Positions 4,174 to 64,000 of a stretch of DNA of 64,000 bases are shown piece after piece. Numbering within the stretch: position 1 is the stretch's first letter; each line of letters opens with the position of its first letter. A program made the translations under genes and the position numbers. Location: positions 1,178,001 to 1,242,000 of the forward strand of contig JBAIAA010000119.1 in the NCBI GenBank assembly GCA_037893245.1. Direction: 5' to 3'. This DNA is from Crossaster papposus. Lineage: Eukaryota > Echinodermata > Asteroidea > Velatida > Solasteridae. The notes beneath the pieces are model-generated. The model was given only the letters and a program-made list of their open reading frames with translations. It ran no database searches and was not told the origin of the DNA.

Positions 4174-5551
4174 TAACACATATTTCTTTTCATTTGAGCA
4201 TTAATTTAACTTTATCGCAATATATCTAACAATTCTGTTTACTGAAATCTTGTGTACATTTTTAATATACATTCAATAAAAATAGCATCATCAAGTTAAG
4301 CCTGTATCGGAGCTAACCCAGGGTGAAACGGACAATGTCGACTTTAATTTAAACAAGTGTGACCAGTCGCCTTCCTCGACAGGCCCCAGGACTATTTTCC
4401 CATATATATATATATATAGAGTTTCAACTAGACTTCGCTATAAATATAGCTCCCTCTATAATTTAGGAAATACTGCCTTCTACAGCTTTAAAAACTTTGT
4501 TTTTAATTGCGCCCTCGCGTGCTACAACAATAGGCCCATTGTTGCATACTTTACATTCTTTTGCTTTGTTAATTGCTTGCTTAGTTTTCTTGTTGGCGCA
4601 AGGCAGTGTTTGGGGCATTGGTCCTTTGACTTTTGTTCTAGCCACACCTTAATACTGATACATTCGTACACGGGTTGTGTGGCACGAGCTTGGTCGGCCA
4701 ACGCGGTTGAGTACACACTGGTTTATTATATTTTTCAATTATCTTATTCTAAATGATTTTTGTTGAAGTCTTGTAAATACTTTCAATGATACTGACTTGT
4801 AATTTTAGAATAAGAAATTAATGAACTGTTCATTTTGTTATCTTTAATTTTAGACTTGATTACAGACATCCAATTGGCTGTCGTTCCTTCGGCGCCTTTT
4901 AGTTCTTTTGGAAATTTAAGTTTTTTTAATAAAATAACTGTAAATACAACTTCCCGTTCCACATCTTCATTTATTATTTGAGTAGCCTCGAGCACATTCA
5001 TGGAATTGCCCCAGTGGATTCCTCCTAATTTGGCTACACAAGTATTGGTATAAAAACACTGCTATCCAACTTGCACAATAATTACATTTCACAATTCAAG
5101 CTGCGCTTTATTTAAACGGTAAAGATCGCTTTACTTACCCTGTGACGTCCCCAACTCGTGCCAGCCAAGCTGTGCAAAACAGCACCGATAAATTAATGGG
5201 TACATGACATGTAAATAGGTAGCAATTGCATTAGCAGCTACATTTAATGGGCTATGTACATGTATTCAGGAAAGCAGAAGAGTTAACGTTAACTCGAGGG
5301 AGCTCACAAATGGAATGACTAAAAACCTAACGGTGCCCTAAATCTGATTTATGTTCCCTTCTTGCCTCAAGTTCAAGTTGTTATGTCACGCTAACCAACC
5401 ACCGTTGATGACAACTTGAAGGTTGGACATGGGCCGGCGAAGAATTAAAGGAAACGCAAACAATGTCCACTAGCAAATCTGCATCACAGTCAAAAGTAAA
5501 GTTGACAACCGCCGTACTATCTTGCGCGCGCGAGAGAGCGTGCACCCATAC
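4174..5551. other. Shared unit backbone, no convincing gene
   Basis: Common to units 1, 2, 4 and 6. Contains a TA microsatellite near 4402-4417 and, on the minus strand, eroded open stretches (4463-4716 and 4783-5001) whose counterparts differ in frame between units. A GC-rich CGCGCG/GAGAG run lies at 5522-5540. I see no intact gene. Confidence 0.5.
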
Positions 5552-14684: not shown

Positions 14685-16961
14685 CGGAGGTTTGTAAAGC
14701 TCATTACCTAATCGGATAAACGTCAGCTGCAGACCATTGGTGTTTGGTCTTTTTTAAATTAAATGTCGTCAAACGGAATGCACCACCGTATAAATAAAGA
14801 CATCGATAATTAGAAAATAGCGTATACGTTCATAACCGAGTCAATTTCACGCTGGTTGATTTCATTCTCAAAATGTAATAAGCAATTCAAAGCAATTCAA
14901 TTGTTCCAACAATAAGCGGCTTTACAAAATGTACTTTACACAAATGTAGTTGCCAAATACATGTATCCCAACTCTCGTAATTATTATGGACGTTTTCAGT
15001 GATGAAGACGATTCGAAAAGGAGTTTTTACCGTCAGTAGATTAAGAAATTATTAAGTTCCAGTGAACTGACAGCCTGGAATTAAATAAAGTCACAAATAT
15101 TGTGAGTTGCTTTAAATAAAACCTATTCTTTTGTACTAATTGTAACCTAGAGGTGGTTTGGTAACGATACAATTTTAAGAAAATCAGGAAACAGAAGGGG
15201 TGGTGACAAAAGTGTTTAGTGTTCTTGAAGTTAGATTATTTTATTTAGTACGAACAATCTCCCGCGCAATATACCCACAATTTACGATATAAAAAATGAC
15301 AGCCAAAGGTGTCTGCAAATAAATAAAGGAAATAGAAATACTATTAACACATATTGCTATTCATTTGAGCATTAATTTAACTTTATTGCAATATATCTAA
15401 CAATTCTGTTTACTGAAATCTTGTGTACATTTTTAATATACATTCAATAAAAATAGCATCATCAAGTTAAGCCTGTATCGGAGCTAACCCAGGGTGAAAC
15501 GGACAATGTCGACTTTAATTTAAACAAGTGTGACCAGTCGCCTTCCTCGACAGGCCCCAGGACTATTTTCCCATATATATATATAGAGAGAGTTTCAACT
15601 AGACTTCGCTATAAATATAGCTCCCTCTATAAATACTGCCTTCTACAGCTTTAAAAACTTTGTTTGTAATTGCGCCCTCGCGTGCTGCATTCAACAATAG
15701 GCCCATTGTTGCATACTTTACATTCGTTTGCTTTGTTAATTGTTTGCTTAGTTTTCTTGTTGGCGCAAGGCAGTGTTTGGGGCAATGGTCCTTTGACTTT
15801 TTGTTCTAGCCACACCTTAATACTGATACATTCGTACACGGGTTGTGTGGCACGAGCTTGGTCGGCCAAGGCGGTTGAGTACACACTGGTTTATTATATT
15901 TTTCAATTATCTTATTCTAAATGATTTTTGTTGAAGTCTTATAAATACATGCAATGATACTGACTTGTAATTTTAGAATAAGAAATTAATGAACTGTCCA
16001 TTTTGTTATCTTTAATTTTAGACTTGATTACAGACATCCAATTGGCTGTCGTTCTTTCGGCGCCTGCACGTTCTTTCGGCGCCTTTTAGTTCTTTTGGAA
16101 ATTTAAGTTTTTGTAAATAACTGTAAATACAACTTCTAGTTCCACATCTTTATTTATTATTTGAGTAGCCTCGACCACATTCATGGAATCGCCCCATTGG
16201 ATTCCTCCTAATTTGGCTACACAAGTATTGGAAAAAAACACTGCTATCCAACTTGTACAAGAATTAAATTTCACAATTCAAGCTGCGCTTTATTGAAACG
16301 GTAAAGATTTTACTTACCCTGTGACGTCCCCAACTGATGCCAGCCAAGCTGTGCAAAACAGCACCGATAAATGCATGGGTACATGACATGTAAATAGGTA
16401 ACAATTGCAGCTACATTGTAATGGGCTATGTACATGTATTCAGGAAAGCAGAAGAGTTAACGTTAACTCCAGGGAGCTCACAAATGGAATGACTAAAAAC
16501 CTAACGGTGCCCTAAATCTGATTTATGTTCCCTTCTTGCCTGAAGTTCAAGTTGTTATGTCACGCTAACCAACCACCGTTGATGACAACTTGAAGGTTGG
16601 ACATGGGCCGGCGAAGAATTAAAGGAAACGCCAACAATGTCCACTAACAAATCTGCATCACAGTCAAAAGTAAAGTTGACAACCGCCGTACTATCTTGCG
16701 CGCGCGCGAGAGCGTGCACCCGAGAGCGTGCACCCATACTTAGGGATTAACAGTGCGAGGACCCGGTCATTACTGCGTTATAATTGACCGGGTTGGGGGA
16801 TGACAGCTTTTAATGGACCAGTTGTTTATTTGAATTGACAACAGAGGGCGCTCTTCAGAATCGACGATCCAGTGTCAACAATATTTTCGAATTTGTGCCA
16901 ATGCTACGTGGAATCGCCTGTCTGGAATCAGGTGCCAACCCACCACATGCAGCAGTACGTG
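14685..16961. other. Unit 2 backbone, no intact gene
   Basis: Counterpart of unit 1 positions 9-666 and 4174-6640 without the unit 1 insertions. Includes a TA microsatellite near 15573, a CGCGCG run near 16698 and the eroded minus-strand frames noted separately. Confidence 0.5.
16086..16274 (-). other. Possible eroded coding stretch on the backbone
   Basis: A 62-aa open frame containing SWIAVFFSNTCVAKLGGI and MNVVEATQIINKDVELEVVF. The unit 4 copy (42335-42523) is identical in length. In unit 1 the equivalent frame (4783-5001) starts later and extends further (TANWMSVIKSKIKDNK). I recognise no family. Frames differ between copies, which argues for a dead gene or chance. Confidence 0.2.
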
Positions 16962-18377: not shown

Positions 18378-18537
18378 GTGATGCCATCATATTCCCAGAG
18401 CTTTTGTCATAATCTTCACTCATTTATGATGCCCAAGGAACTTGAGAACTGATAGATGCAGTATCTAGATGCAGTGACTCCGTGAAATCCATACTCAACA
18501 CTTAAAAAAGAACATCAGCGATAAAGACGTTCATAAT

Positions 18538-18871: not shown

Positions 18872-19198
18872 TAAGCGGGATCCTTTATAATAAGCAGCAT
18901 TAGAAGCAAACTGCGCACGATATTAATTTAGTTGAAGGGTCATTTTTTACTACACTTGGACGTCTGTATCTCTGGTTAGGAAGGCCGAACATAAATGATT
19001 AAAGCTCTTAATGTAAGAAGTTCCTCGACGTTAAATGAACGAAAACATATGCGAAATATAAGCATGACGTCACGTAAAAGTACTTTGACCTTGGACCCTG
19101 CGGGAGTCGCAAAATACTTTGTCTATGTGTTAGTATGTTAAAATAATCTCCATTGTTTTTTTCGTATGTATTCAACGAAAAATAGAAAAAAATAACAA

Positions 19199-19365
19199 CA
19201 AACCTACAAATTGTTCATGGTTCTTGTATTAATATTATTGCGCTATAGACCCCCACCTCGTTGCTATGGTTTCAACAACAACAAACCTACCAAATGTTCA
19301 TGGTTCATGTAATAATAATATTGTGCTATTATAGACCCAACTTTGTTGCTATGGTTTCAACCACA
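19199..19365. repeat. Two tandem ~85-bp repeats
   Basis: Direct copies share AACAACAAACCTAC, GTTCATGGTTC, ATTGYGCTAT and GTTGCTATGGTTTCAAC. A single related stretch is in unit 1 near 8040-8105. Confidence 0.75.
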
Positions 19366-19404
19366 ACAAACACACAGTACGCTTCCCTGGTACTAGCCAG
19401 CTTT

Positions 19405-19700
19405 CCATTCGGAACGGGAGACAAAGAGAATCGGACAGTAAGACGAGCGAAAACATCGATCCGCGCATGCGTGAAACCGAATTATGTCTCGCTTGTTGAG
19501 TTTGGGAACCCAGACACAGCGAGCTTTCGTCTCGAGACGGGAGACAAAGAGAACGGTAAGCCGAGCGAAAACATCGAGCCGCTCAAACGCGAAACCGAAC
19601 TCGTCTCTGTCCTGTTGTGTAATTGGAAATGGTTCTCGGGTGAAATAGCGTTCGGTCTGTAAGCACTACGGAGCGGTACATTGTGTACACTAGTTGGATC
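19405..19700. repeat. Tandem pair of a dispersed GGGAGACAAAGAG repeat
   Basis: Two copies of about 110 bases (GACAAAGAGAA, GAGCGAAAACATCGA, CGAAACCGAA, GTCTC, TTGAGTTTGGGA). Related copies occur inverted at about 20590-20690, direct at 27383-27445 and 28320-28400, and inverted at 29300-29360. A 133-aa frame (19261-19662) runs through it but is repeat-derived. An unclassified dispersed repeat. Confidence 0.65.
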
Positions 19701-22290: not shown

Positions 22291-22559
22291 GGTAGGATAC
22301 ATCATTAAAAAAGCAAGAAAAACGGCGTTCATTTTCAACCGGCGTCGGGCAGTTGTTCTTGTTGTTCTTGTTATTTCGCGAATGCCGTCTGGCGATCGTT
22401 TATTGTTTATAAAATTAAATTTGTCGGGTCAATTACATAATTTTTAGCGCAGTTATTTTGTTGGATGCCTTGAATCAATAATTACTTTCAAATAAAGGAG
22501 ATATTTCTAAATAATTTGGTAGTGAAATATTTCGATATCTGCAAATGGTGTATCCTGCC
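22291..22559 (+). mobile_element. MDAE-type MITE, shorter copy (unit 2)
   Basis: Begins GGTAGGATACATCATTAA and ends GCAAATGGTGTATCCTGCC, with the family text AACGGCGTTCATTTTCAACC and GTTGTTCTTGTTGTTCTTG. The ATG region is lost. Lies about 150 bases beyond the stop of the unit 2 FREP. Confidence 0.7.
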
Positions 22560-22710
22560 TCGCGTTGACAGAGTGAACATCCACACTGAAAATCACATTA
22601 TTCCATAGACACATATTTTGGCAGTTTTATAACAATTCTAAAAGACTCGAGGTATTAATGAATAATATGGTTGTGCAATGATTTCAAAATTTATATCAAC
22701 AATTGAACGT

Positions 22711-23775
22711 TCATGTTTCAATTTCGCGCGTTTTCATGCTACATGCTTTCATGGAATAATGACCTGGTTTCCACGAATACCATTGCACACCCTGGTCAGT
22801 ACCTGCATTCTCATCTGGGTAATAATATAGACCATTCAAGTGAGAATACCAACAGTTATTAAACCACCAGGCTCCTGTGAACTGCTGTGCACAGTTGCGC
22901 CCTGACGCCGCATCATTGTCATGATTCTTCGTTGAAAAGGGATGTCCTTTTTGATAATAGTTCATATAATCTCCCTGATGTCCAAGAGAGTCGCCGGCAG
23001 TGCTGCTGGCATCGTATTGGTCATAATTCAGCTTGTAATCACCCGGGGATATTTGGAAATCCGAGTATTTTGCCCATGCTGTGTTGCCCTCCCAGTCCTC
23101 TAAATAAACTCGTAGCTCCCATGTTCCATGTAAATCGTCAGACGTCAGAGTCACCAAGTTGTCATTACCCAACCAGAACTCACCGGACAGATCGCCAAAG
23201 CCAGACTGGTAGTCGGCCCAGTTACGGTAGAAGTCGACGCTGCCATCTTGTCGCCTCTGAAACACGATCCATCCCCCATCGTCAGTTTCCATGTCACAGT
23301 AGACACGAAGACCATCATTGCCGAATCCCTCTGGGTAGATTGTGTAGATATCACTTGAAAGATAACCGGCATCTAAGAGCATCTTGCAACTTCTGTAGCG
23401 ATTCAAGGAGCTATCAGCCAGTGAGTAGAGAGGTGTGTCCTCATCTGCATCAAAGTACACCATTCCTTGAGTTGCATTGAAGTCTTCGAGATGCTCTCGT
23501 CTTGTTGCAAGGTTCATCTCGCACATTTTATTGCAGTCGTTAAAGTTAAACGACCTGCAACGTTCATCCTTGCTGCATTCTCGTCCGCAGATGACACGAG
23601 ATCGCACAGTTTTTGTTGCATACGCCAATTCTTCCAGGGCGCGATTTTCGGCGGCAAAAAACGTATGTTTCCCTGTATATGAAGATGTTTCAAATCCAAA
23701 GACGGGTGAATTAGCTCCCTCGTAAATGATTAATATTATGTGAAATAGTTCAAAACAGATGATTTGTTTCGCCAT
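22711..23775 (-). CDS. Intact fibrinogen-related protein with PAN/apple-like domain
   Basis: 354-aa secreted protein in one uninterrupted exon. Residues 1-27 form a signal peptide (MAKQIICFELFHIILIIYEG). A PAN/apple-like region spans about 31-113 with cysteines 63, 67, 73, 81 and 85. A complete FBG domain spans about 127-348: SCKMLLDAG, VYCDMETDDGGW, WIVFQRRQDGSV, WLGNDNLVTLT, the calcium-site-like FSTKNHDNDA (280-289), and NCAQQFTGAWWFNNCWYSHL with cysteines 295 and 308. The length is normal for an FBG domain of about 215 residues. FBG lectins of invertebrates bind acetylated sugars on microbes and act in innate immunity; that role is inferred. The start is chosen because every paralogue begins MAKQ. 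The Mesh of neighbours is all transposon debris; a promoter-like block lies 450 bases upstream. Confidence 0.92.
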   Translation of the reverse strand: MAKQIICFELFHIILIIYEGANSPVFGFETSSYTGKHTFFAAENRALEELAYATKTVRSRVICGRECSKDERCRSFNFNDCNKMCEMNLATRREHLEDFNATQGMVYFDADEDTPLYSLADSSLNRYRSCKMLLDAGYLSSDIYTIYPEGFGNDGLRVYCDMETDDGGWIVFQRRQDGSVDFYRNWADYQSGFGDLSGEFWLGNDNLVTLTSDDLHGTWELRVYLEDWEGNTAWAKYSDFQISPGDYKLNYDQYDASSTAGDSLGHQGDYMNYYQKGHPFSTKNHDNDAASGRNCAQQFTGAWWFNNCWYSHLNGLYYYPDENAGTDQGVQWYSWKPGHYSMKACSMKTREIET

Positions 23776-36062: not shown

Positions 36063-37156
36063 CGGAGGTTTGTAGCTCATTACCTAATCGGATAAACGTC
36101 AGCTGCAGATCATTGGTGTTTGGTCTATTTTTAAATTAAATGATGTCAAACGGAATGCACCACCGTATAAATAAAGGCATCTATAATTAGGAGGTAGCGT
36201 ATACGTTCATAACCGAGTCAATTTCACGCTGGTTGATTTCATTCTCAAAATGTAATAAGCAATTCAAAGCAATTCAATTGTTCCAACAATAAGCGGCTTT
36301 ACAAAATGTACTTTACACAAATGTAGTTGCCAAATACATGTATCCCAACTCTCGTAATTATTATGGACGTTTTCAGTGATGAAGACGATTCGAAAAGGAG
36401 TTTTTACCGTCAGTAGATTAAGAAATTATTAAGTTCCAGTGAACTGACAGCCTGGAATTAAATAAAGTCACAAATATTGTGAGTTGCTTTAAATAAAACC
36501 TATTCTTTTGTACTAATTGTAACCTAGAGGTGGTTTGGTAACGATACAATTTTAAGAAAATCAGGAAACAGAAGGGGTGGTGACAAAAGTGTTTAGTGTT
36601 CTTGAAGTTAGATTATTTTATTTAGTACGAACAATCTCCCGCGCAATATACCCACAATTTACGATATAAAAAATGACAGCCAAAGGTGTCTGCAAATAAA
36701 TAAAGGAAATAGAAATACTATTAACACATATTTCTATTCATTTGAGCATTAATTTAACTTTATTGCAATATATCTAACAATTCTGTTTACTGAAATCTTG
36801 TGTACATTTTTAATATACATTCAATAAAAATAGCATCATCAAGTTAAGCCTGTATCGGAGCTAACCCAGGGTGAAACGGACAATGTCGACTTTAATTTAA
36901 ACAAGTGTGACCAGTCGCCTTCCTCGACAGGCCCCAGGACTATTTTCCCATATATATATATAGAGAGAGTTTCAACTAGACTTCGCTATAAATATAGCTC
37001 CCTCTATAAATACTGCCTTCTACAGCTTTAAAAACTTTGTTTGTAATTGCGCCCTCGCGTGCTGCATTCAACAATAGGCCCATTGTTGCATACTTTACAT
37101 TCGTTTGCTTTGTTAATTGTTTGCTTAGTTTTCTTGTTGGCGCAAGGCAGTGTTTG
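36063..37156. other. Unit 4 backbone, no gene seen
   Basis: Counterpart of unit 2 14685-15777, ending at the transposon target. No intact gene. Confidence 0.5.
36197..36243. other. Inferred crossover window between type A and type B units
   Basis: Left of it, diagnostic bases match units 1 and 6 (GTAGCTCATT, CAGATCATT, GGAGGTAGCG). Right of it they match unit 2 (TTCTCAAAATG, CAATTGTTCC, TTTACACAAATG). The window itself is identical in units 2, 4 and 6, and is where an unequal exchange could switch templates. Confidence 0.6.
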
Positions 37157-37315
37157 TAGTCCAGGCTCCAGAATGCCAAAATCGCTTTATAAAAAAATTA
37201 CCCTACACTATTTGCTCCCCTTAATTTATTGTGTGTTTACGATTCGCATATTTTGTCTTATTAAGAATCTGGACGGTGTAAAAAATAATTCCCCGGCGAA
37301 AGTGCTTTTTTTTGA
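37157..37315 (+). repeat. Left terminal inverted repeat of the 4.87 kb element
   Basis: TAGTCCAGGCTCCAG is followed by CCCTACACTATTTGCTCCCC, then AATCTGGACGGTGTA and GGCGAAAGTGC. Each string has a match in the same order at the right end. Confidence 0.8.
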
Positions 37316-38786
37316 CAAAATTGTAGTGAAAATCCAACGTCAAAGATAAGAAAACGAAATGTCCCGGTGCCCTTTTCATAAGGCTCGTTTAACAACGCGT
37401 TAATTCGGGTACCAGTCTCTCTCCGAATGCATGCGGCCAACCTCGTTGTCATGGTCAGCGCGGCGAGTACGCCGATGGTACGTGTCGCTTCCCCAAATTA
37501 ACCGAGGAGCATAGTCATGGGGGAAAACGATCGGGAAAGAGGTTACTTTAAAATGGCGGTGCTGCATGCATGCTGAAGCAGACGAATTGCGAGCAGACGA
37601 TCGATATATTTGTACTTTTTAGGTGTTTTCGAGAGAAAGTTGAACAAGTATTTATGTCACATGAACCTTGCCGGCATAAATTAAAATAAATCTTTAAGAA
37701 AATGTCTTTTGTATTAAAACTGCGTTGAAAGAACGGTACAAACGAATAAGAATAAATTGATCCAGGTAAGTACGTACGGTCTGATGGTCTGACCGTGAAT
37801 TTGTCGATTTCTGGTCGAGGTTTCCGTAGCGACAATCGGTATGGTAATATCATGGTTATGTATACGTTAACGCGGTGCGCGCAGAGTTTGTATCGTACTT
37901 TGAATCATAATCTTGTGTGATTGTCAAACGCAAGTGACAAGAACACCTTTCTCTGAAGATTGAAGACCATACTTTACAACAAACGGGGTAAGAAATTATT
38001 TTCAATTAAATAAACTCTGTGTTGTCTGTAGTACTAGCTAGGAAAGAATCCCATGTTCAGACATCACATCTTGTTTTGCTGAGATTAGTTTCTTGTTTTG
38101 CTGAGAAGTTCCCAGCTTTTACCACAAAGGATGCTTACATTTTTGAAGTTTGAGAACACTGTTTAGGAATGAAAAAACTAACATTAAGTATCTCCTTGAC
38201 TACTTTTTTTCTGTATAGGTTTTGTACACAGGAACTTGGATGATGTCCACATATGGAATTCTTTCCAAGTTCTTTTTCCAAAATGTTAACTAAAAATTGA
38301 AAACCAGCTTTTAGGCCTACATATTGTTACTCACTCGTGTCGTGTTCTTTTTGTTCTATAGCCAGGCCTATTTAATTTCTTGCTCGATCAATCCACTAAA
38401 TAATGTTTTCATATGTTGGTGGGTATGGTTACAAATCATTTTAATATTTCATCACAAATTCATTTTGAAAATAATGCTAATTTTGTTTTAAAATGACCAT
38501 CTGGTTGAGTGGTAAATAAAATAGAGTGTAGTAGGCCTAACAATAGTTATTCTCAGTTAGGACGGAGTGGATGTGGTGTATTAGAGTAGACTCCTGTTGT
38601 TTAATTTGTCGTTTGTTCTTCGGTCCTCATTTTGTTAGAATGTCTTCAATCAGTCTTCAATTATATGAAGTTGGTGCCTAACTGCAGGACTACATCTCAT
38701 CAGGAAAAACTAGAAAACTTAAACTGCAAACATTTGATGTCCTAAATAAAAGCAAAAAGCCAAGAGAAAAGAAACAAAAGCAGTCG

Positions 38787-40379
38787 ATGACTGATGAGAT
38801 GGCCATACTTAAACGACTTGTCATTGAGACAGAACGAGGCTCTCTCAGTACCCCACTTGAAGACTTGCTGACACATGAGCTGCATGCGTATCCTCCTTCT
38901 ATAGCAGAAGTCGATTCCACCACAAAGAACATCAAACTTCGTAGCGGAAGCAAAGCAGCTCTACAGCATATCTGTAGAAAAAGAATAGGGCTTAAAGAAT
39001 GGCCGGTCACCATGTCTTCTACCACCCACAAAACAGGTGTCGTCGTTGATGTAATGGGGCTAATAAGAACGCACAAACCCTTTAATTACGAAGTTAGTGA
39101 GAAGTATGCAGCAAGACTCTTGCAGTCAGCTAAACAAGAATTATTCAGCACAGAGATCCATCTTGTTGCTGATAGATATGATGGCCTTCATGATGTCCAA
39201 GATGAAAATGGTAACAGTGTATGCTTAAAATCAGCCAGTGGTTGTAGAGATCGGCGTTCAGAATCAAGGGTTGAGTACCAAGTGTGCAAGAGCCTTCCGA
39301 TAAAGCACTGGGATGACATAATCACTAACAGCAAAAGCAAGTCCAACCTGCTGAGCTTTGTTTTTGATTGCTGGACACAGTACTCAACTCTTCTAGAAGA
39401 TGGCATAACTCTCACCCTTGCTGGTGGTTTCCAGAATAGGCAACATGTGACATCATTAAAGTCTGACAGACAACCTATCATCCCTGACGACATTGACCTA
39501 GCAAGCACCCATGAGGAGGCAGACACTCGTGTATTTTTACACACTGCAGCTTGTGTACACAGGGGGTGTACCCGGGTTGTTATAAGAGCATCTGATACCG
39601 ATATTGTGGTGATGGCGGTGTATTTTTATCAACGGCTTGCGGATGAAGGTTGCCGGGAACTGTATGTGCAAACAAAGGACTACTTCATTCCCATTCATGA
39701 TGTTGTCGCCTCTTTCAGTGTAAATGAAGCAAAGATGTTGCCCCTTCTTCATGCACTCAGCGGCTGTGACACAAACAGCTTCTTCTTTGGTAAAGGCAAA
39801 GTAAAATTTGTCAAGTCTTCAGCAAGTGTCTCTGCTCACCACGCTAACATTTGTGACCAGCTGGAACATCAGAGCAATGTTTCTAAGGACTTTGTTGTGC
39901 ACATCACAAAAATTGCGACCGATCTTCTAACTAAGGTGTATGGGCATAGTGATTTCTCTAGTTTGGACATGTTGAGACGTCACCTTTACGCAAGGGTCGA
40001 AGACATAAAGTCATTGCCTCCAAAAAATGATGCTTTCCAACAACATGTCTTACGTGCCATTTTCCAAACGAGTGTCTGGGTTAAGGCCATGCAGGCAAGA
40101 CCATCCCTTTCTGACCCCTTTAATTACGGATGGAGATCAACATCATCTGGAGTTGAACCTGTACTTGTGCAACGTAGTTATCTTCCACACCACCTTCGAA
40201 GCAAACTATTCTGCAAGTGTAAGAAGAATTGCAGAAGAAATTGCCCTTGTCTAAAGAAGAAACTAGCGTGCGATTACTCATGCTCGTGCAAAGGTCAAGC
40301 AGCTACCTGTGTGCGAGCAGATACTGAATTAGACGATGCTACTCCCGATGACGAGTCTGAAAGTGTCACAGAAGAGTAA
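38787..40379 (+). CDS. FEN1/XPG-like nuclease with C-terminal Tesmin/TSO1-like cysteine cluster
   Basis: 530-aa protein. I see the acidic residues of a FEN1/XPG (PIN-like) nuclease in order: VVVDVMG (D88), HLVADRYDG (D129, D132), STHEEADTR (E243, E244, D246), RASDTDIVV (D270, D272) and HALSGCDTNSFFFGKGK (D328). Their spacing resembles FEN1 D34, D86, E158/E160, D179/D181 and D233, and the GCDT...GKGK stretch sits where FEN1 has its helix-two-turn-helix start. Residues 476-508 hold nine cysteines (CKCKKNCRRNCPC, then C495, C499, C501, C508), like Tesmin/TSO1 CXC DNA-binding repeats. The tail is acidic. The frame stays open 33 codons upstream to a good splice acceptor (CTAACTGCAG, 38678-38687), and a donor-like GGGGTAAGA lies at 37985. 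Uncharacterised proteins with these motifs are common in marine invertebrates. The function in transposition is inference; it could instead be a passenger. Confidence 0.75.
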   Translation: MTDEMAILKRLVIETERGSLSTPLEDLLTHELHAYPPSIAEVDSTTKNIKLRSGSKAALQHICRKRIGLKEWPVTMSSTTHKTGVVVDVMGLIRTHKPFNYEVSEKYAARLLQSAKQELFSTEIHLVADRYDGLHDVQDENGNSVCLKSASGCRDRRSESRVEYQVCKSLPIKHWDDIITNSKSKSNLLSFVFDCWTQYSTLLEDGITLTLAGGFQNRQHVTSLKSDRQPIIPDDIDLASTHEEADTRVFLHTAACVHRGCTRVVIRASDTDIVVMAVYFYQRLADEGCRELYVQTKDYFIPIHDVVASFSVNEAKMLPLLHALSGCDTNSFFFGKGKVKFVKSSASVSAHHANICDQLEHQSNVSKDFVVHITKIATDLLTKVYGHSDFSSLDMLRRHLYARVEDIKSLPPKNDAFQQHVLRAIFQTSVWVKAMQARPSLSDPFNYGWRSTSSGVEPVLVQRSYLPHHLRSKLFCKCKKNCRRNCPCLKKKLACDYSCSCKGQAATCVRADTELDDATPDDESESVTEE

Positions 40380-40709
40380 ACTGAATACAAAAAGAGGATG
40401 TTATCATATCCAGCTCTTTTTTGCCTGTCAAGTTCTCTCAAAGTTAACATTCTTTATTAGGTGAACCGGGTTATTTTATTTCTAAGTCAACACAGGTGTT
40501 ATGAATCCAACATAGGCGCATAACAAGCTACTATGTAGTTAGTGAATTGTTTATCTGTCATTTGGAAAACATTCATAACAAATCTTAATATTAAAACAAG
40601 TCAACAAAAAAACTGTTTCACTTGACGAGGGGCTATTAATGTTGACTGAAATTTATTATTGGTCATGTTATTGATATGTTGTGTGACATAAACAAATTCA
40701 ATTTATTAA

Positions 40710-40874
40710 GGGAATAAATGTGTGTTCGAGAGGTTTTAATCACTCTGTTTAATACCGATTGGAGTCTGGGTGCTGATAATTACCCGAGCCGAAGGCGAGG
40801 GTAATTATCAGCACCCAGACTCCAAGAGGTATTAAACAGAGTGATTAATACCGACCGAACACACATTTATTCCC
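40710..40874. repeat. Palindrome P4 with GCCGAAGGC tip
   Basis: About 165 bases of inverted repeat: GGGAATAAATGTGTGTTCG pairs with the right end, TTAATCACTCTGTTTAATACC and GGAGTCTGGGTGCTGATAAT pair inward, and the tip reads CCCGAGCCGAAGGCGAGGG. It lies 330 bases after the stop codon. The AATAAA at 40713 could serve as a polyadenylation signal. It may be part of the transposon or a separate insertion. Confidence 0.85.
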
Positions 40875-41689
40875 ATTCATAAATACCTTTTTTTTTAAAT
40901 TCAGCCCAAAAAGCCCCGAAAATCCCGGAAAATTGTCGCAAGTAAATTTCGGTGTTTCGCCATTCTGTCTGTGTCAAATGACATGTTTCCGCCTCTGTCG
41001 CTCTCTACACAATACATGCAATAAAGCGTATTTACTGTGAACCAGACTATTACTGCCATTGGCAACCTCGTTCCCAAGGTGTCGAGCTGTACGCGCTCAA
41101 CACTACCCGCTCTTATTATTGGAGACGAGGTACGGTTCAGGGTTGGAAATAAAGTGAGCCCTGGGGACGGAATGTTGTTTTCAGCTATGTTTAAACACTT
41201 CCAGCCATGTCTTTATCGTCCGTTTAATACCGACCACGTGACGGGCTCTCGACCAATAGGAATGCCTAAACTGTCCCAGGTATTTATGAATAATTGTTGA
41301 ACAATAAACCTGTGTTTCAACTTTGTTTTACATTTGGATAACAAATACAACATGTACAGAAAGTTATTTTTCAATAAAACGGGCAAAAAGTACGAAATAC
41401 GCCCTATAATGGAGGATTCTTTTTTTATTTTGTCAATTTTGCCGATTGTGGTAAATGAAACATTCAGACAAAATTTGAGGAATATCGGCTGTAAACATTT
41501 GAAAATAGAGATTCTTTATCACAATGGGTTAGCCACCCATAAATTGAACCCCTGGCCATTTATTTTTATTTTATTTTTTATTTTTTTTGGGGGGGGGCAC
41601 TTTTAATGTCTGAAACTCAGTTTTGGCCAAATACTATTTTAAAATGAACGCTATTAAAAACGACGTTTTCTCTTTATTATTACACAAAA

Positions 41690-41895
41690 TGGCCGCCATT
41701 TTGGATTTTGCCAAATTTAAAAAATAGCCCGGATGTGAACTTTTGAACACATGCTTATTTATCGTAAGTCGCCCTCTGAGCCAAATTTGGGTTCATTCGA
41801 CCGATTAATGTTGAGTTTATTTAACAATTCATAGTTTTGATATTTTTGGGGGGAAATGGCGGCCATATTGGATTTTGGCCAAAAATGCATTTTCG
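41690..41895. promoter_or_regulatory. Repeated AAATGGCGGCCAT-type sites near the transposon right end
   Basis: CAAAATGGCCGCCATTTTGG (from 41685) and GAAATGGCGGCCATATTGG (from 41854), each followed by ATTTTG and CCAAA. The core fits the animal YY1 consensus (AANATGGCGGC). A regulatory role is only suggested. Confidence 0.3.
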
Positions 41896-42025
41896 CCTGG
41901 TCAAATTTTAATACACCGTCCAGATTCTGAATCAGCAGGGGTTACTACATAAAAAAACGTAAAAATATTATGGGGAGCAAATTGTGTAGGGTTAACTCAT
42001 TTTTTTGGGACTGGAGCCTGGACTA
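41870..42025 (-). repeat. Right terminal inverted repeat of the 4.87 kb element
   Basis: Read on the minus strand: TAGTCCAGGCTCCAG, CCCTACACAATTTGCTCCCC, AATCTGGACGGTGTA, AGGCGAAAATGC, in the same order as the left end with mismatches and small indels. Confidence 0.8.
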
Positions 42026-43210
42026 TTGGGGCAATGGTCCTTTGACTTTTTGTTCTAGCCACACCTTAATACTGATACATTCGTACACGGGTTGTGTGGC
42101 ACGAGCTTGGTCGGCCAAGGCGGTTGAGTACACACTGGTTTATTATATTTTTCAATTATCTTATTCTAAATGATTTTTGTTGAAGTCTTATAAATACATG
42201 CAATGATACTGACTTGTAATTTTAGAATAAGAAATTAATGAACTGTCCATTTTGTTATCTTTAATTTTAGACTTGATTACAGACATCCAATTGGCTGTCG
42301 TTCTTTCGGCGCCTGCACGTTCTTTCGGCGCCTTTTAGTTCTTTTGGAAATTTAAGTTTTTGTAAATAACTGTAAATACAACTTCTAGTTCCACATCTTT
42401 ATTTATTATTTGAGTAGCCTCGACCACATTCATGGAATCGCCCCATTGGATTCCTCCTAATTTGGCTACACAAGTATTGGAAAAAAACACTGCTATCCAA
42501 CTTGTACAAGAATTAAATTTCACAATTCAAGCTGCGCTTTATTGAAACGGTAAAGATTTTACTTACCCTGTGACGTCCCCAACTGATGCCAGCCAAGCTG
42601 TGCAAAACAGCACCGATAAATGCATGGGTACATGACATGTAAATAGGTAACAATTGCAGCTACATTGTAATGGGCTATGTACATGTATTCAGGAAAGCAG
42701 AAGAGTTAACGTTAACTCCAGGGAGCTCACAAATGGAATGACTAAAAACCTAACGGTGCCCTAAATCTGATTTATGTTCCCTTCTTGCCTGAAGTTCAAG
42801 TTGTTATGTCACGCTAACCAACCACCGTTGATGACAACTTGAAGGTTGGACATGGGGCAGCGAAGAATTAAAGGAAACGCCAACAATGTCCACTAGCAAA
42901 TCTGCATCACAGTCAAAAGTAAAGTTGACAACCGCCGTACTATCTTGCGCGCGCGCGAGAGCGTGCACCCGAGAGCGTGCACCCATACTTAGGGATTAAC
43001 AGTGCGAGGACCCGGTCATTACTGCGTTATAATTGACCGGGTTGGGGGATGACAGCTTTTAATGGACCAGTTGTTTATTTGAATTGACAACAGAGGGCGC
43101 TCTTCAGAATCGACGATCCAGTGTCAACAATATTTTCGAATTTGTGCCAATGCTACGTGGAATCGCCTGTCTGGAATCAGGTGCCAACCCACCACATGCA
43201 GCAGTACGTG
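42026..43210. other. Unit 4 backbone after the transposon, no intact gene
   Basis: Counterpart of unit 2 15775-16961, including the eroded minus frame at 42335-42523. Confidence 0.5.
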
Positions 43211-44625
43211 TAGACCACAGGGCATGGCCGATTATCTTGCACCTTCTTGACGCATATCGTGAATCTATATACATTTTACTTTAAACTACTTAGGAAGTTG
43301 TTGGGAAACTCACAAATAAAATCCCCAAACGGTCCGCGAACCAGTACTCGATAAAATCTCAATTTAAAATTCATGTTTTTCAACGACCAATCAACGAGGC
43401 CCTTCTGTCGTGGTGCGGCACGTTTGTGCGAATAGTGGGAAAATGGACCAATAGCGGGCGTTGTGAAATAGAGCGAGCGTAGGCGCTGTTGACACGAGCT
43501 GCTCAGATGATAGCGATTTGAACAAAAAAAAGTGTATTATGCACGGTTCAGATGCAGATTCCAGGGTTTTGTTGTTCTCTGAAAAGAGTTTAAAAACATT
43601 CCACGCTTGTGCCGGTAGGTGGAAAAATGTACCCAAGCAAAAATCGCCGAAAAAGCGGAGATGATCATATCGGCATTCCAATCGTACACGCACTGGTTGA
43701 TGTACCGCAGGAATCCGCATTGTCAACAGTACGTGATGTAGTTGAGTATATGCCGTTAAAAAAATAGAACAGAGGTGGAGTTTGGACAAAAAACCCCGAA
43801 CAACTGTCCTTGACAAACTTTCACAATGCCAGACGCTGACTGCAGGAAAGCTTCTGGAAGCAGCGAGGAAAAAAGAAGATCAGTGGCTGCTCTCACAGGT
43901 CGAAGGGAAGGATCTTGTCACCACAGAAACATTGTATCACACAGTCTGCTTTCCATCTGACTCTCCCTAATATAAATTCAGCTGGAAATGGGCAAAATGT
44001 TTGTTATAACAGAATTGTGTATTAAATGTAAATCGGTACGAGTTGTTGTTCACCCACTCACATGTACATTGTTAAAGACATGAACAAATTTCAGTTTTAC
44101 CGTCACGAATAAACATGTATCAAAGACTAAAGCTAAACAAAAAATCTGGTCGTGTATATATTTTTTTCATACAATTTACATTTAGATTTTTAACCCCCCC
44201 CCCAAAAAAACAAATAAATTATAACACAAAAATCAAACAATAACAATAAAAAAATGACACTCTATTAAAATTATGGCAATGAACAAAATGAAAATTTGTA
44301 TTAAGACATTAAAACACACCCTAATTCCTCTTTAATCGAATTCTGTCTGTGTAGAATCCCTTTTGAGCAAGCAACTGCAATAAGCAATCTTTTCCCATTG
44401 AAAATGTACACAGCTTTCCAATCCTGGTCAATAGAGGGCGCCCGTTATACACAGGTGATTAAAATGCAAATATTTAATTAACTGGTGAACTTGCAATTGG
44501 GGATTTTGTTTTTTCGTGATCCACATGATCCCAGCTAACATACTGCAGTGATTCCACTTAGATTCAAGAGGTGCGCCAAGAAAATTGATTTCTGAGCACA
44601 TTTTGCAGCCATGCCCTGTGGTCTA
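43211..44625 (+). mobile_element. TAG-ended 1.4 kb element with 3-bp duplication (unit 4)
   Basis: Duplicate of the unit 2 element, carried along by the segmental duplication (same site, same GTG flanks). It differs from the unit 2 copy by a few bases and homopolymer lengths, for example near 43757 and 44196. Confidence 0.85.
43539..43970 (+). pseudogene. Decayed N-terminal Cys/His region of the FEN1-like family (unit 4)
   Basis: Same two readable pieces as at 17290-17720 (FHACAGRWKN; EGKDLVTTETLYHTVCF), with one extra A in a homopolymer near 43757. Broken. Confidence 0.55.
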
Positions 44626-44785
44626 GTGATGCCATCATATTCCCAGAGCTTTTGTCATAATCTTCACTCATTTATGATGCCCAAGGAACTTGAGAACTGA
44701 TAGATGCAGTATCTAGATGCAGTGACTCCGTGAAATCCATACTCAACACTTAAAAAAGAACATCAGCGATAAAGACGTTCATAAT

Positions 44786-45119
44786 AGATACACCATTGGT
44801 AATTGCTTGAATTATCAGGAATGGGTAGATTTGGGGGGTTGTATTTTATCGTTTAACTGACCTGTCCGAAGTGTTACCATCATGGATGCCGAGCAAAATA
44901 CACGAGAAACGGCGTTAGTTTTTAACCGGCGTCAGGCAGTTGTTCTTGTTCTTCTTTTTTGCGATCGCCGCCCGGCGATCGTCGATCGTTTGAAGAAAAC
45001 AAAATCAGTTTTGTTCGCAACAATTTTATGGCTTAATCATTTGGTTGGATGCCTAGAATCTATATTTAACAATTCGGTAGTCAACAATTATGATATATGC
45101 AAATGGTGTATTCTACCTT
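44786..45119 (+). mobile_element. MDAE-type MITE (unit 4)
   Basis: Copy of the unit 2 element at 18538, with the same ATGGATGCCGAG start (44882). Confidence 0.7.
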
Positions 45120-45444
45120 TAAGCGGGATCCTTTATAATAAGCAGCATTAGAAGCAAACTGCGCACGATATTAATTTAGTTGAAGGGTCATTTTTTACTA
45201 CACTTGGACGTCTGTATCTCTGGTTAGGAAGGCCGAACATAAATGATTAAAGCTCTTAATGTAAGAAGTTCCTCGACGTTAAATGAACGAAAACATATGC
45301 GAAATATAAGCATGACGTCACGTAAAAGTACTTTGACCTTGGACCCTGCGGGAGTCGCAAAATATTTTGTCTATGTGTTAGTATGTTAAAATAATCTCCA
45401 TTGTTTTTTTCGTATGTATTCAACGAAAAATAGAAAAAAATAAC

Positions 45445-45950
45445 AACAAACCTACAAATTGTTCATGGTTCTTGTATTAATATTATTGCGCTATAGACCC
45501 CCACCTCGTTGCTATGGTTTCAACAACAACAAACCTACCAAATGTTCATGGTTCATGTAATAATAATATTGTGCTATTATAGACCCAACTTTGTTGCTAT
45601 GGTTTCAACCACAACAAACACACAGTACGCTTCCCTGGTACTAGCCAGCTTTCCATTCGGAACGGGAGACAAAGAGGATCGGACAGTAAGACGAGCGAAA
45701 ACATCGATCCGCGCATGCGTGAAACCGAATTATGTCTCGCTTGTTGAGTTTGGGAACCCAGACACAGCGAGCTTTCGTCTCGAGACGGGAGACAAAGAGA
45801 ACGGTAAGCCGAGCGAAAACATCGAGCCGCTCAAACGCGAAACCGAACTCGTCTCTGTCCTGTTGTGTAATTGGAAATGGTTCTCGGGTGAAATAGCGTC
45901 CGGTCTGTAAGCACTACGGAGCGGTACATTGTGTACACTAGTTGGATCCA
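45445..45950. repeat. Tandem repeats, as in unit 2 (19199-19700)
   Basis: The ~85-bp pair followed by the GGGAGACAAAGAG pair, near-identical to unit 2. Confidence 0.7.
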
Positions 45951-48537
45951 TATGTCATCAGGTGTTTTCTAAGAACCAAAAGTGAGATGTAATAAGATTT
46001 AGAATGTTTAGGATTCTTTACATATTTTATGTTTCCTAAATTTCTTTGAGGATTTAGTTGTTTTTTTAGGATTTTGGAAATATTTCCACAGGAGTTTAAA
46101 AATGGTGAAAAATCATGTTTTATGTTTGAAAATAGCTTCTAAAAGAAGAAGGCCACGCCCCTTTTAGGGGTTTCCATGATTTTATCAGAGCCTATTTCAA
46201 ACAACAGGCTCAGGTGTTTTCTAAGACCTGGAAGTGATATGAAAGCAGTTTGGGGATCCTCAAAAGCTAAATTTATATGAATTTACATGTTCTAAAATGT
46301 ATGTTGGAAAACATCAATTTTGATATCATTTTGGGGGCGAAAACATTTGAAAATCAATAGCCGTCATTTTCACACTAGAAATACGGAATACTCGGTGCAT
46401 TGATGTCATACAAAAAATCATCGTTCAAAATGTCGCAGAAATATGCACTGACAAGGGTGTCTTCATAGGCCTTGTCCGAATTGCTGGCTTTGGCTGTGAC
46501 TTCGGCCGTTGCTATGATGTTGCTTTGGGCGGTCATAGCCAAAGCCAACAATTCGAACATGGCCCAGTTCTGTGTAGATTCGCCATGTTAATGTAGCCCT
46601 GTAGAATTGTGAACAGCGCCCTCGTACGGGCAGCCATCTTATTCAACAACGTGTTCATGACTGTGATCTGAGATTAACAAGAGGCCAAAAGTTGTTTAGG
46701 GGCCAGATACAAGTAATTGCATTTTATCATCGTTGTGAAGTTGTGCATGCTCGGTTTGTGTAGATGTGAGTGACACAGACAATGTTGGCTCTCAGGTTTT
46801 AACCAAAGAATTTCCCTGTCTGCTTGGGCCAGCTCCCGAGAATCGCTGGAGATCCACTTCGTCAACAGGCGAGACATGTTCGGTTTTACACATGCGCGGA
46901 TCGATGTTTTCGCTCCCAAACTCAACGTCCAGGGCGCGGCCAGGGCGGCGAAGACGAAGTTGAGAATCTGCATTTGTATAATACTATGTAAACTCCTTAA
47001 TGGCATATTACAAACAGGGACAGGTGTTTGAAGCATAAACCCCAGCGGCCTTACACCTGCCAATCACGCTGCGATAATTACACACTCGTAAACTCAACAC
47101 GAACAACCTAAATAAACTGAGACAAATTAATCGTGGATTGGTTCTTGTCGCTCAGTTTATTCAACGTCATTGGTATTTTTGTATTGGAACCATTTTTGTA
47201 TCGCAATATACAAGCAAAAAGTAAAATGTGCTTATTAATTATGATTATTTGTTGCCCTCTTCCACGGTATTGATGTGGTTTTGGTAATATTAAATTAATT
47301 TCAATTATAAGCGCTCACTTAAGAGAAGGCGCTCCAAACAATGTATAATGTTATAATTGCGATTTAGTGAAATTGTTTTAAATGATTACCACATTTCTTA
47401 CTTGCGTTTTAAACAAATGACACGCCCATAATAAAACCTAGTTTCCCAAATGCAAAGAATAATGTAAAAAAGGAATTGTTTTTTAATTTCCTTTTTTTTT
47501 GTCACAAGGAACAACCATCAACTTTCATATTTTAAAATTGTGCAGACATATAATAAATAATGACATCAGAAGAAATAAACAAATGTGAAATTCGGATTCT
47601 TTTGTGGCTTTAGAGTATTTTCGTGGGGACGTAACTGGGGTAAAACATTATGTGAATATTTATAATATTTTTTATAAGAGGAATAACACTTGCTACAAAT
47701 TCTAAGCTGATGTCATTTTGTGCAACATATTCGTGCAATACAAATATTATTAATGCATTCATGTACGAATAACACTTATTCTCTAAGCTGACAGCACTTG
47801 TCAAACTATAATTGAAATCCAAGTAACATATTGTTTTCACATACGCTGTATTTATAATTTAGCAAGAACAGTTTTCACAACGTTCCGTTATTATGGACCT
47901 TATTCAAAAAGAAGACATTCGGGTTGTGTTCCCCGGATGTATCTGTTGAACGGGATGGTGCCAGACTATTTTTGCATTCTAGCCTCACTTTCAATATTTA
48001 TTTTGAAATGTGGCATCAAACATTAAGGTGTGTTTATTCACAAATGTTTAATTATTCATCAGAGACGACTGGAGTTATGTGGTAATTAAATGTAGGTCAT
48101 TGCTTTCATTTCTATCTGCAAGTTCCAAAACTGAAGATTTTACCTCACTTTCAATGTATTATAGCCGACTCGTGAATAAATCTCATAGTGACGGATGCTG
48201 TTCGTAGCCCTACAATGCTGAAAGTTATAGTACTTTAAAGAAGAATTTAAACAAGACCATCGTGTCTCTTTTGTTTAAATAATGCAATTGGCAGCATGTT
48301 GTACATAATTATAATATCAGTGAACTGTGTGTGATTGCGCCTATAGCGTCGATGTTTAAAACAAGGAAAATCAGAGTGAAAATAAACTAAGTCTTACTCT
48401 CGGTTGAACTCGGCTATAATTTAACATTGCGATATGATCATAGCCGTTGTTTCGTCAGATGTACAAAATATAATGGGTATCCTTTTGTAATAAGCAAAAT
48501 AAAACCACAAAAACAACAACAGATTTCGCCTCTTAAA
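45951..48537. other. Unit 4 backbone, no convincing gene
   Basis: Counterpart of unit 2 19701-22290 with scattered single-base differences; a small cluster of them lies near 47571-47600. No gene recognised. Confidence 0.45.
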
Positions 48538-48806
48538 GGTAGGATACATCATTAAAAAAGCAAGAAAAACGGCGTTCATTTTCAACCGGCGTCGGGCAGT
48601 TGTTCTTGTTGTTCTTGTTATTTCGCGAATGCCGTCTGGCGATCGTTTATTGTTTATAAAATTAAATTTGTCGGGTCAATTACATAATTTTTAGCGCAGT
48701 TATTTTGTTGGATGCCTTGAATCAATAATTACTTTCAAATAAAGGAGATATTTCTAAATAATTTGGTAGTGAAATATTTCGATATCTGCAAATGGTGTAT
48801 CCTGCC
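48538..48806 (+). mobile_element. MDAE-type MITE, shorter copy (unit 4)
   Basis: Copy of 22291-22559, with the same ends GGTAGGATACATCATTAA and CAAATGGTGTATCCTGCC. Confidence 0.7.
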
Positions 48807-48957
48807 TCGCGTTGACAGAGTGAACATCCACACTGAAAATCACATTATTCCATAGACACATATTTTGGCAGTTTTATAACAATTCTAAAAGACTCGAGGT
48901 ATTAATGAATAATATGGTTGTGCAATGATTTCAAAATTTATATCAACAATTGAACGT

Positions 48958-49476
48958 TCATGTTTCAATTTCGCGCGTTTTCATGCTACATGCTTTCATG
49001 GAATAATGACCTGGTTTCCACGAATACCATTGCACACCCTGGTCAGTACCTGCATTCTCATCTGGGTAATAATATAGACCATTCAAGTGAGAATACCAAC
49101 AGTTATTAAACCACCAGGCTCCTGTGAACTGCTGTGCACAGTTGCGCCCTGACGCCGCATCATTGTCATGATTCTTCGTTGAAAAGGGATGTCCTTTTTG
49201 ATAATAGTTCATATAATCTCCCTGATGTCCAAGAGAGTCGCCGGCAGTGCTGCTGGCATCGTATTGGTCATAATTCAGCTTGTAATCACCCGGGGATATT
49301 TGGAAATCCGAGTATTTTGCCCATGCTGTGTTGCCCTCCCAGTCCTCTAAATAAACTCGTAGCTCCCATGTTCCATGTAAATCGTCAGACGTCAGAGTCA
49401 CCAAGTTGTCATTACCCAACCAGAACTCACCGGACAGATCGCCAAAGCCAGACTGGTAGTCGGCCCAGTTACGGTA
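48958..49476 (-). pseudogene. FREP with 5' half deleted (unit 4)
   Basis: Matches unit 2 from TYRNWADYQ to the stop. Everything before it (signal peptide, PAN region and the first quarter of the FBG domain, 557 bases corresponding to 23230-23786) has been removed, joining ACGGTA directly to the 5' leader at AGTTAAGG. The remaining open frame has no in-frame ATG near its start, only a GTG. The promoter-like block 440 bases upstream is intact, so a transcript could still be made, but no secreted protein. Confidence 0.9.
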
Positions 49477-61630: not shown

Positions 61631-64000
61631 CGGAGGTTTGTAGCTCATTACCTAATCGGATAAACGTCAGCTGCAGATCATTGGTGTTTGGTCTATTTTT
61701 AAATTAAATGATGTCAAACGGAATGCACCACCGTATAAATAAAGGCATCTATAATTAGGAAGTAGCGTATACGTTCATAACCGAGTCAATTTCACGCTGG
61801 TTGATTTCATTCACACAATGTAATAAGCAATTCAAAGCAATTCAATCGTTCCAACAATAAGCGGCTTTACAAAATGTACTTGACAAAAATGTAGTTGCCA
61901 AATACATGTATCCCAACTCTCGTAATTATTATGGACTTTTTCAGTGATGAAGACGATTCGAAAAGGAGTCTTTACCGTCAGTAGATTAAGAAATTATTAA
62001 GTTCCAGTGAACTGACAGCCTGGAATTAAATAAAGTCACAAATATTGTGAGTTGCTTTCAAAAAAACTATTCTTTTGTACTAATTGTAACCTAGGTGGTT
62101 TGGTAACGATACAATTTTAAGAAAATAAGGAAACAGAAGGGGTGGTGACAAAAGTGTTTAGTGTTCTTGAAGTATAGATTATTTTATTTAGTACGAACAA
62201 TCTCCCGCGCAATATACCCCAAATTTACGATATAAAAGAATGACAGCCAAAGGTTTCTGCAAATAAATAAAGGAAATAGAAATACTATTAACACATATTT
62301 CTTTTCATTTGAGCATTAATTTAACTTTATCGCAATATATCTAACAATTCTGTTTACTGAAATCTTGTGTACATTTTTAATATACATTCAATAAAAATAG
62401 CATCATCAAGTTAAGCCTGTATCGGAGCTAACCCAGGGTGAAACGGACAATGTCGACTTTAATTTAAACAAGTGTGACCAGTCGCCTTCCTCGACAGGCC
62501 CCAGGACTATTTTCCCATATATATATATATATATATAGAGTTTCAACTAGACTTCGCTATAAATATAGCTCCCTCTATAATTTAGGAAATACTGCCTTCT
62601 ACAGCTTTAAAAACTTTGTTTGTAATTGCGCCCTCGCGTGCTACAACAATAGGCCCATTGTTGCATACTTTACATTCTTTTGCTTTGTTAATTGCTTGCT
62701 TAGTTTTCTTGTTGGCGCAAGGCAGTGTTTGGGGCATTGGTCCTTTGACTTTTGTTCTAGCCACACCTTAATACTGATACATTCGTACACGGGTTGTGTG
62801 GCATGAGCTTGGTCGGCCAAGGCGGTTGAGTACACACTGGTTTATTATATTTTTCAATTATCTTATTCTAAATGATTTTGGTTGAAGTCTTATAAATACA
62901 TGCAATGATACTGACTTGTAATTTTAGAATAAGAAATTAATGAACTGTCCATTTTGTTATCTTTAATTTCAGACTTGATTACAGACATCAAATTGGCTGT
63001 CGTTTTTTCGGCGCATTTCTGTTCTTTCGGCGCCTTTTAGTTCTTTTGGAAATTTAAGTTTTTGTAATCAAATAACTGTAAATACAACTTCCCGTTCCAC
63101 ATCTTCATTTATTATTTGAGTAGCCTCGACCACATTTACGGAATCGCCCCAGTGGATTCCTCCTAATTTGGCTACACAAGTATTGGTATAAAAACACTGC
63201 TATCCAACTTGCACAAGAATTACATTTCACAATTCAAGCTGCGCTTTATTTAAACGGTAAAGATCGCTTTACTTACCCCGTGAAGTCCACAACTCGTGCC
63301 AGCCAAGCTGTGCAAAACAGCACCGATAAATGAATGGGTACATGACATGTAAATAGGTAGCAATTGCATTAGCATCTACATTTAATGGGCTATGTACATG
63401 TATTCAGGAAAGCAGAAGAGTTAACGTTAACTCGAGGGAGCTCACAAATGGAATGACTAAAAACCTAACGGTGCCCTAAATCTGATTTATGTTCCCTTTT
63501 TGCCTCAAGTTCAAGTTGTTATGTCACGCTAACCAACCACCGTTGATGACAACTTGAAGGTTGGACATGAGCCGGCGAAGAATTAAAGGAAACGCCAACA
63601 ATGTCCACTAGCAAATCTGCATCACAGTCAAAAGTAAAGTTGACAACCGCCGTACTATCTTGTGCGCGCGCGAGAGCGTGCACCCGAGAGCGTGCACCAA
63701 TACTTAGGGATTAATTAACAGTGCGAGGACCCGGTCATTACTGCGTTATAATTGACCGGGTTGGGGGATGACAGCTTTTAATGAACCAGTTGTTTCTTTT
63801 TATTGACAACAGAGGGCGCTATTCAGAATTGACGATCCAGTGTCAACAATATTTTCGAATTTGCTGCCAATGCTACGTGGAATCGCCTGTCTGGAATCAG
63901 GTGCCAACCCACCACATGCAGCAGTACGTGATGCCATCATATTCCCAGAGCTTTTGTCATAATCTTCACTCATTTATGATGCCCAATGAACTTGAGAACT
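61623..64000. repeat. Tandem locus unit 6, start only (type A')
   Basis: Start of another type A unit, cut by the window edge. It matches unit 1 without the 3.5 kb insertion and without the Harbinger-like MITE, so it supplies the empty site for both (near 62287 and 63710). It also supplies the empty site of the TAG-ended 1.4 kb element (CAGTACGTGATGCC near 63923). No gene is visible here; short minus-strand frames around 62582-62835 are the same eroded stretch described for units 1 and 2. Confidence 0.85.

What the first reader, a model, noticed from the sequence alone, without database searches (positions are those of the whole stretch)
37157..42025. Possible undescribed DNA transposon group with a FEN1/XPG-like nuclease instead of a DDE transposase
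The element is mobile by direct evidence: empty site in the sister unit, 3-bp TTG duplication, perfect 15-bp outer ends and about 150 bp of imperfect inverted ends. Its only long ORF has the ordered acidic motifs of a FEN1/XPG-type nuclease (D88, D129/D132, E243/E244/D246, D270/D272, D328) and a CXC-type cysteine cluster that could bind the ends. None of the transposase families I know (DDE of hAT, Tc1, PIF, piggyBac, MULE, CACTA; tyrosine or HUH enzymes) is visible. Known superfamilies with 3-bp duplications (PIF/Harbinger, CACTA, Chapaev) have other ends and enzymes.
Basis: partly seen in the sequence, partly recalled or inferred. Interest (0 to 1): 0.88.

Follow-up and report, generated by a model that had tools for sequence, protein, structure and literature searches.

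The report
Recent transposon with repair-type nuclease gene
A freshly inserted 4.9-kb jumping gene carries a gene that looks like a DNA-repair-type nuclease but no recognisable transposase; it fits best as a stripped-down relative of a transposon lineage already in print (AcademX), although no relative could be fetched to prove that.

Summary
The element is real. 37157-42025 is a 4,869-bp insertion with 15-bp perfect ends inside about 150-bp imperfect inverted repeats (0 of 1000 random pairs score as well), a 3-bp TTG duplication, and three uninterrupted sister sites in the window; one matches the joined flanks over 800 of 800 bases. Its only long frame (38688-40379, first ATG 38787) is open from a possible splice acceptor.

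The FEN1/XPG reading is supported by motif order (0 of 50,000 shuffles, post hoc pattern) and a local profile match at GCDTN/GTDYN (0 of 700 shuffles). Whole-domain tests are weak, family libraries give no significant match, and structure prediction failed (pLDDT 39.6 and 33.9). A nine-cysteine CXC-like cluster ends the protein.

'Undescribed group with a nuclease instead of a DDE transposase' is not supported. The Academ superfamily (DDD/E transposase) already has a nuclease-encoding lineage, AcademX, with 3-4 bp duplications (passages of PMC10045372). This copy shows no uninterrupted frame for a DDE domain outside the ORF. Best reading: a transposase-less, trans-mobilised AcademX-like derivative. 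No relative was found in the collections searched; the host genome is not held.

The parts
37157..42025 (+). whole inserted element, 4869 bp
   Evidence: empty sites in three sister units
37154..37156 (.). TTG target-site duplication, left copy
42026..42028 (.). TTG target-site duplication, right copy
37157..37316 (+). left inverted end: 15 bp perfect, then imperfect blocks 37200-37230 and 37257-37311
41866..42025 (-). right inverted end, imperfect complement of the left end
38688..40379 (+). open frame of 563 codons plus stop, from a possible splice acceptor; first ATG at 38787
   Evidence: acceptor read by eye
39012..39836 (+). FEN1/XPG-like nuclease region (residues 76-350): VVVD85-88, EAD244-246, D270xD272, GCD326-328
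   Evidence: ordered motifs 0 of 50,000 shuffles; hhalign residues 293-339, 0 of 700 shuffles; positions
40212..40310 (+). nine-cysteine CXC-like cluster, residues 476-508
   Evidence: no Pfam match for 40170-40301 at E<=10
37172..38687 (.). 5' part of the element, apparently non-coding; two donors of a strict pattern at 37766 and 37988
   Evidence: longest plus-strand open stretch 58 codons
40710..40874 (.). palindrome, 81-nt arms 90% complementary, inside the 3' part
15777..15779 (.). empty target site (TTG) in sister unit, flanks 100% over 800 bp
62729..62731 (.). empty target site (TTG), second sister unit
4610..4612 (.). empty target site (TTG), third sister unit

Best explanation
A recently inserted terminal-inverted-repeat DNA transposon in a tandem array of PAN/fibrinogen-domain genes, probably of an animal. 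Shown: insertion, ends, 3-bp duplication, one intact long frame. Inferred: the ORF is the C-terminal, nuclease part (FEN1/XPG-like fold plus CXC-like zinc cluster) of an AcademX-type transposon protein; the DDD/E transposase part is absent from this copy, so the copy is non-autonomous and was moved in trans by a full-length relative elsewhere in the genome. A DDD/E enzyme would bind the inverted ends, cut the element out and join it to a 3-bp staggered target. The FEN1-like part would trim or process flaps or branched ends during excision, joining or gap repair, and the cysteine cluster would help to hold DNA or chromatin.
For: Ends, duplication and empty sites. Ordered FEN1/EXO1 motif set at residues 85-328, 0 of 50,000 shuffles. 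hhalign to a 7-sequence FEN1/EXO1 profile: score 29.06, 0 of 200 and 0 of 500 shuffles. hmmsearch to the same profile: 2 of 2000 shuffles reach it. AcademX: nuclease-encoding, 3 or 4 bp duplications (passages of PMC10045372). Academ is listed among the DDD/E superfamilies (passage of PMC9587614). A curated mollusc library held 100 Academ elements with DDE-profile hits, mean 5,565 bp (passages of PMC10294476), not far from this 4,869 bp. Outside the ORF the longest plus-strand open stretch is 101 codons. The frame is open 33 codons upstream of the first ATG to a possible acceptor, as expected of a 3' exon of a longer gene. Recalled, not tested: many unnamed animal proteins carry a longer N-terminal half before this same nuclease-plus-CXC half.
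Against: No Academ sequence was available to compare with, so homology to AcademX is not tested. No DDE transposase is seen in the copy. Pfam, NCBIfam and PDB sequence searches give no XPG match. An archaeal-only FEN1 profile was not significant (347 of 2000 shuffles as good), nor human EXO1 alone (163 of 2000) or two EXO1 together (41 of 2000). The profile match covers 46 columns only; the first 300 residues alone align to the profile in the wrong register. The fold predictions are unusable. Strict XPG-type strings VFDG, AP.EA[DE] and G.DY are absent. Academ terminal sequences were not seen.
Confidence: 0.6

Rival explanations
1. The element is autonomous as it stands: a DNA transposon group whose only enzyme is a FEN1/XPG-like nuclease that makes the cuts itself, with no DDE enzyme.
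For: Very recent insertion with an intact 563-codon frame; no other credible coding region; FEN1-like motifs.
Against: One copy only; trans-mobilisation explains the same facts; the frame seems to continue upstream of its first ATG; AcademX pairs a nuclease with a DDD/E transposase superfamily and the same duplication length. FEN1-family enzymes are not known to join DNA ends (general knowledge).
Confidence: 0.12
2. The ORF's acidic residues are themselves a divergent DDE (RNase H-fold) triad, so the protein is a conventional but unrecognised transposase.
For: The order D88, D129, E243/E244 would also suit a DDE triad; residues 242-258 are helical in a low-confidence model.
Against: The extra DxD and GCD motifs fit FEN1/EXO1 order; the local profile match lies at the GxD motif; no transposase family match for the 530-aa protein. 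A DDE_Tnp_1_3 match to the separate 108-aa exon-start fragment is sub-threshold (E 0.099).
Confidence: 0.1
3. A non-autonomous inverted-repeat element of another superfamily captured a host FEN1-like gene exon.
For: Exon-like start at a possible acceptor; 3-bp duplications also occur in other superfamilies (general knowledge).
Against: A single-copy host gene of this make-up is not known to me; the animal protein family with these motifs that I recall is highly repetitive, as transposon proteins are (recalled, not tested).
Confidence: 0.1

Closest known systems
AcademX (Academ superfamily of DNA transposons, nuclease-encoding lineage)
   Same: nuclease-encoding, 3-4 bp duplication (passages), similar size to Academ elements (passages)
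   Different: no DDD/E transposase seen in this copy; sequence relationship not tested
FEN1/EXO1/XPG nuclease superfamily
   Same: ordered acidic motifs and local match around GCDTN
   Different: no VFDG, no AP.EA[DE], GCDT instead of G.DY; longer stretch between the second and third motifs; CXC-like tail
KDZ/Zisupton transposons with CxC cysteine clusters
   Same: cysteine cluster in a transposon protein (passages of PMC12062965)
   Different: KDZ carry their own transposase; 8-bp duplications recalled for Zisupton; no Pfam match for the cluster here
Kolobok lineages with accessory nucleases (KolobokD/E/P)
   Same: DDD/E transposons carrying an extra nuclease (passages of PMC9587614)
   Different: other nuclease folds; TTAA duplication recalled for Kolobok, here TTG

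Membership tests
AcademX (Academ superfamily) | 3 or 4 bp target-site duplication | tested here: met
   TTG at both sides, single TTG in 3 of 3 empty sites
AcademX (Academ superfamily) | encodes a nuclease (XPG type, recalled) | tested here: inconclusive
   motif order and local profile match positive; family libraries negative
AcademX (Academ superfamily) | DDD/E transposase of the Academ type | tested here: not met
   in this copy no plus-strand open stretch above 58 codons upstream or 101 codons downstream of the ORF, minus strand at most 118; Pfam gives no significant family for the ORF
AcademX (Academ superfamily) | sequence relationship to Academ proteins and ends | not testable with these tools
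   no Repbase or eukaryote genomes held; Kojima 2020 not held
FEN1/XPG nuclease superfamily | ordered acidic motifs hhhD, E(A/G)(D/E), DxD, G(C/T)D with FEN-like spacing | tested here: met
   P0001 matches; 6 of 7 FEN1/EXO1 sequences match; 0 of 50,000 shuffles; pattern written after seeing P0001
FEN1/XPG nuclease superfamily | significant full-domain sequence match | tested here: not met
   best is 2.4 bits, 2 of 2000 shuffles
FEN1/XPG nuclease superfamily | FEN1/PIN fold | tested here: inconclusive
   models pLDDT 39.6 and 33.9; no PDB match at E<=0.001
Cut-and-paste TIR DNA transposon | inverted ends, duplication, empty site | tested here: met

The most novel reading that the evidence does not exclude
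A family of animal DNA transposons mobilised by a FEN1/XPG-type flap nuclease with a CXC DNA-binding tail and no DDE, tyrosine or HUH enzyme: flap or branched-end cleavage does the strand breakage and host repair does the joining.
Probability: 0.1. Interest if true: 0.88.

Novelty: new variant of a known kind. Interest (0 to 1): 0.35.

Why it matters
If the nuclease were the only enzyme of the family, it would be a new chemistry for cut-and-paste transposition. On the likelier reading it is a recent insertion of a nuclease-bearing transposon copy without a transposase. That gives a clean case for asking what the accessory nuclease of AcademX-type elements does, and whether nuclease-only copies spread in trans.

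Tried and rejected
Relatives: viral contigs, 7 scans; 0 loci each; 1 stretch, rejected by tblastn; 7 stretches, 2 loci, both judged chance: the L002 frame holds a stop and lies antisense to a 253-aa ORF, the L003 match is 16 residues antisense to a 153-aa ORF. Genome contigs, 2 scans, each by one exact degenerate DNA pattern: 0 and 1 locus, L001, judged chance (19 residues, tblastn E 0.095, stops in the frame nearby). Phages and plasmids by tblastn: no match at E<=1. These collections hold no eukaryote genomes as such, so the failures say little about the family's spread.

Structure: both AlphaFold jobs without relatives failed; their PDB searches gave no match at E<=0.001 and are not used as evidence for or against.

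Profiles that were weak: archaeal FEN1 only, EXO1 only and EXO1 pair, pairwise Smith-Waterman with 21 to 934 of 1000 shuffles as good, depending on the sequence. Sub-threshold Pfam matches (Mucin_bdg E 0.18 and 0.024, zf-C2H2_FBX41 0.32, DDE_Tnp_1_3 0.099) and NCBIfam (PRK05867.1 E 0.062 and 0.1) are taken as chance.

Upstream coding exons that would restore a transposase: none credible; donors were sought by one strict pattern only. Literature: the listings brought up no paper on a DDE-less FEN1/XPG transposon (one search listed 25 of 255 papers); the library lacks most subscription papers and the AcademH paper.

Full report
Observation. The window holds sister units in tandem, some over 99% identical (for instance 15777-23229 against 42026-49476, 99.7%), carrying PAN and Fibrinogen_C domain genes (of 3 ORFs scanned, 3 have PAN and 2 have Fibrinogen_C). 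One unit is interrupted by 37157-42025. Three other units cover the site without interruption, and in each the left-flank and right-flank matches overlap by exactly 3 bp. The joined flanks match the unit at 15380-16179 over 800 of 800 bases, so the insertion is young, or separates two nearly identical copies or alleles; either way it is an insertion difference. The ends are 15 bp perfect and about 150 bp imperfect (local score 51; 0 of 1000 random pairs as good).

Gene content. The only long frame in the element runs from a possible splice acceptor (AG at 38686-38687, read by eye) to the stop at 40379; the first ATG is 38787. Between the left end and this exon the longest plus-strand open stretch is 58 codons, and between the ORF and the right end 101 codons; on the minus strand 118 and 103 codons. 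I judged none of these to be a gene, by eye. This leaves no uninterrupted frame for a DDE domain outside the ORF, though several short exons cannot be excluded strictly. The two donors found by a strict pattern (37766, 37988) have no in-frame ATG upstream in the phase needed (read).

Protein. Pfam, NCBIfam and PDB sequence searches give nothing significant. Against FEN1/EXO1, archaeal FEN1 alone is not significant (347 of 2000 shuffles score as well), human EXO1 alone 163 of 2000, two EXO1 41 of 2000, all seven together 2 of 2000. Profile comparison with the seven by hhalign gives score 29.06, 0 of 200 shuffles and 0 of 500 more, reversed sequence 12.84. The aligned part is residues 293-339 only, with GCDTN on GTDYN; when the first 300 residues are taken alone, the alignment is in the wrong register. 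The ordered motif set [VIA][VAI][VIL]D, E[AG][DE], DxD, G[CT]D with FEN-like spacing is found in the protein and in 6 of 7 FEN1/EXO1 sequences, and in 0 of 50,000 shuffles; the pattern was written after seeing the protein, so the figure is optimistic. Structure prediction without relatives failed. I judge a FEN1/XPG-like fold likely (about 0.8) but not shown. Nine cysteines at residues 476-508 in a CXC-like spacing (family spacing recalled) end the protein; Pfam does not match them.

What it is. One lineage is in print: passages of PMC10045372 say that in the Academ superfamily AcademH makes 9 or 10 bp duplications and AcademX 3 or 4 bp, and tie this to the helicase and nuclease that they encode. 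PMC9587614 (passage) lists Academ among superfamilies with a DDD/E transposase. PMC10294476 (passages) built an Academ profile from DDE domains and curated 100 Academ elements with hits to such profiles, mean Academ length 5,565 bp. That the AcademX nuclease is of XPG type, and that animal proteins exist with a longer N-terminal half before this nuclease-plus-CXC half, I recall and did not test. The source paper (Kojima 2020) is not held. Because the transposase was looked for and not found in this copy, I do not file it as a member of AcademX; I read it as a derivative that works with, and likely descends from, such an element.

Mechanism, shown and inferred. Shown: insertion with a 3-bp stagger and inverted ends. 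Inferred: a DDD/E enzyme supplied in trans cuts and joins; the FEN1-like enzyme processes flaps or branches; the cysteine cluster binds DNA or chromatin. The copy is therefore read as non-autonomous, 0.6.

Limits. The host genome is not held and the collections searched are prokaryotic, viral, phage and plasmid, mostly by short exact patterns; the searches for relatives found none. That the host is an animal is inferred from the PAN/fibrinogen genes, not tested.

Noticed in passing
667-4170: A different insertion of about 3.5 kb in the first sister unit, absent from the units at 15342, 36719 and 62286, where flank matches again overlap by 3 bp; the duplication would be imperfect (TAT/TAA). By eye it holds fold-back palindromes near 674-775 and 2535-2645.
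   Followed up: partly
40710-40874: Palindrome with 81-nt arms, 90% complementary, inside the element; 40700-40884 folds at -81.4 kcal/mol as single-stranded DNA against a shuffle mean of -14.4. May be a nested fold-back element.
   Followed up: partly
8434-9240: Tandem array with a 15-base step, open in several frames (GPSGR-type repeats in one, PMDPA-type in another).
   Followed up: no
1-64000: Tandem array of PAN plus Fibrinogen_C genes; repeat units over 99% identical could also be unmerged alleles of one locus in the assembly.
   Followed up: partly
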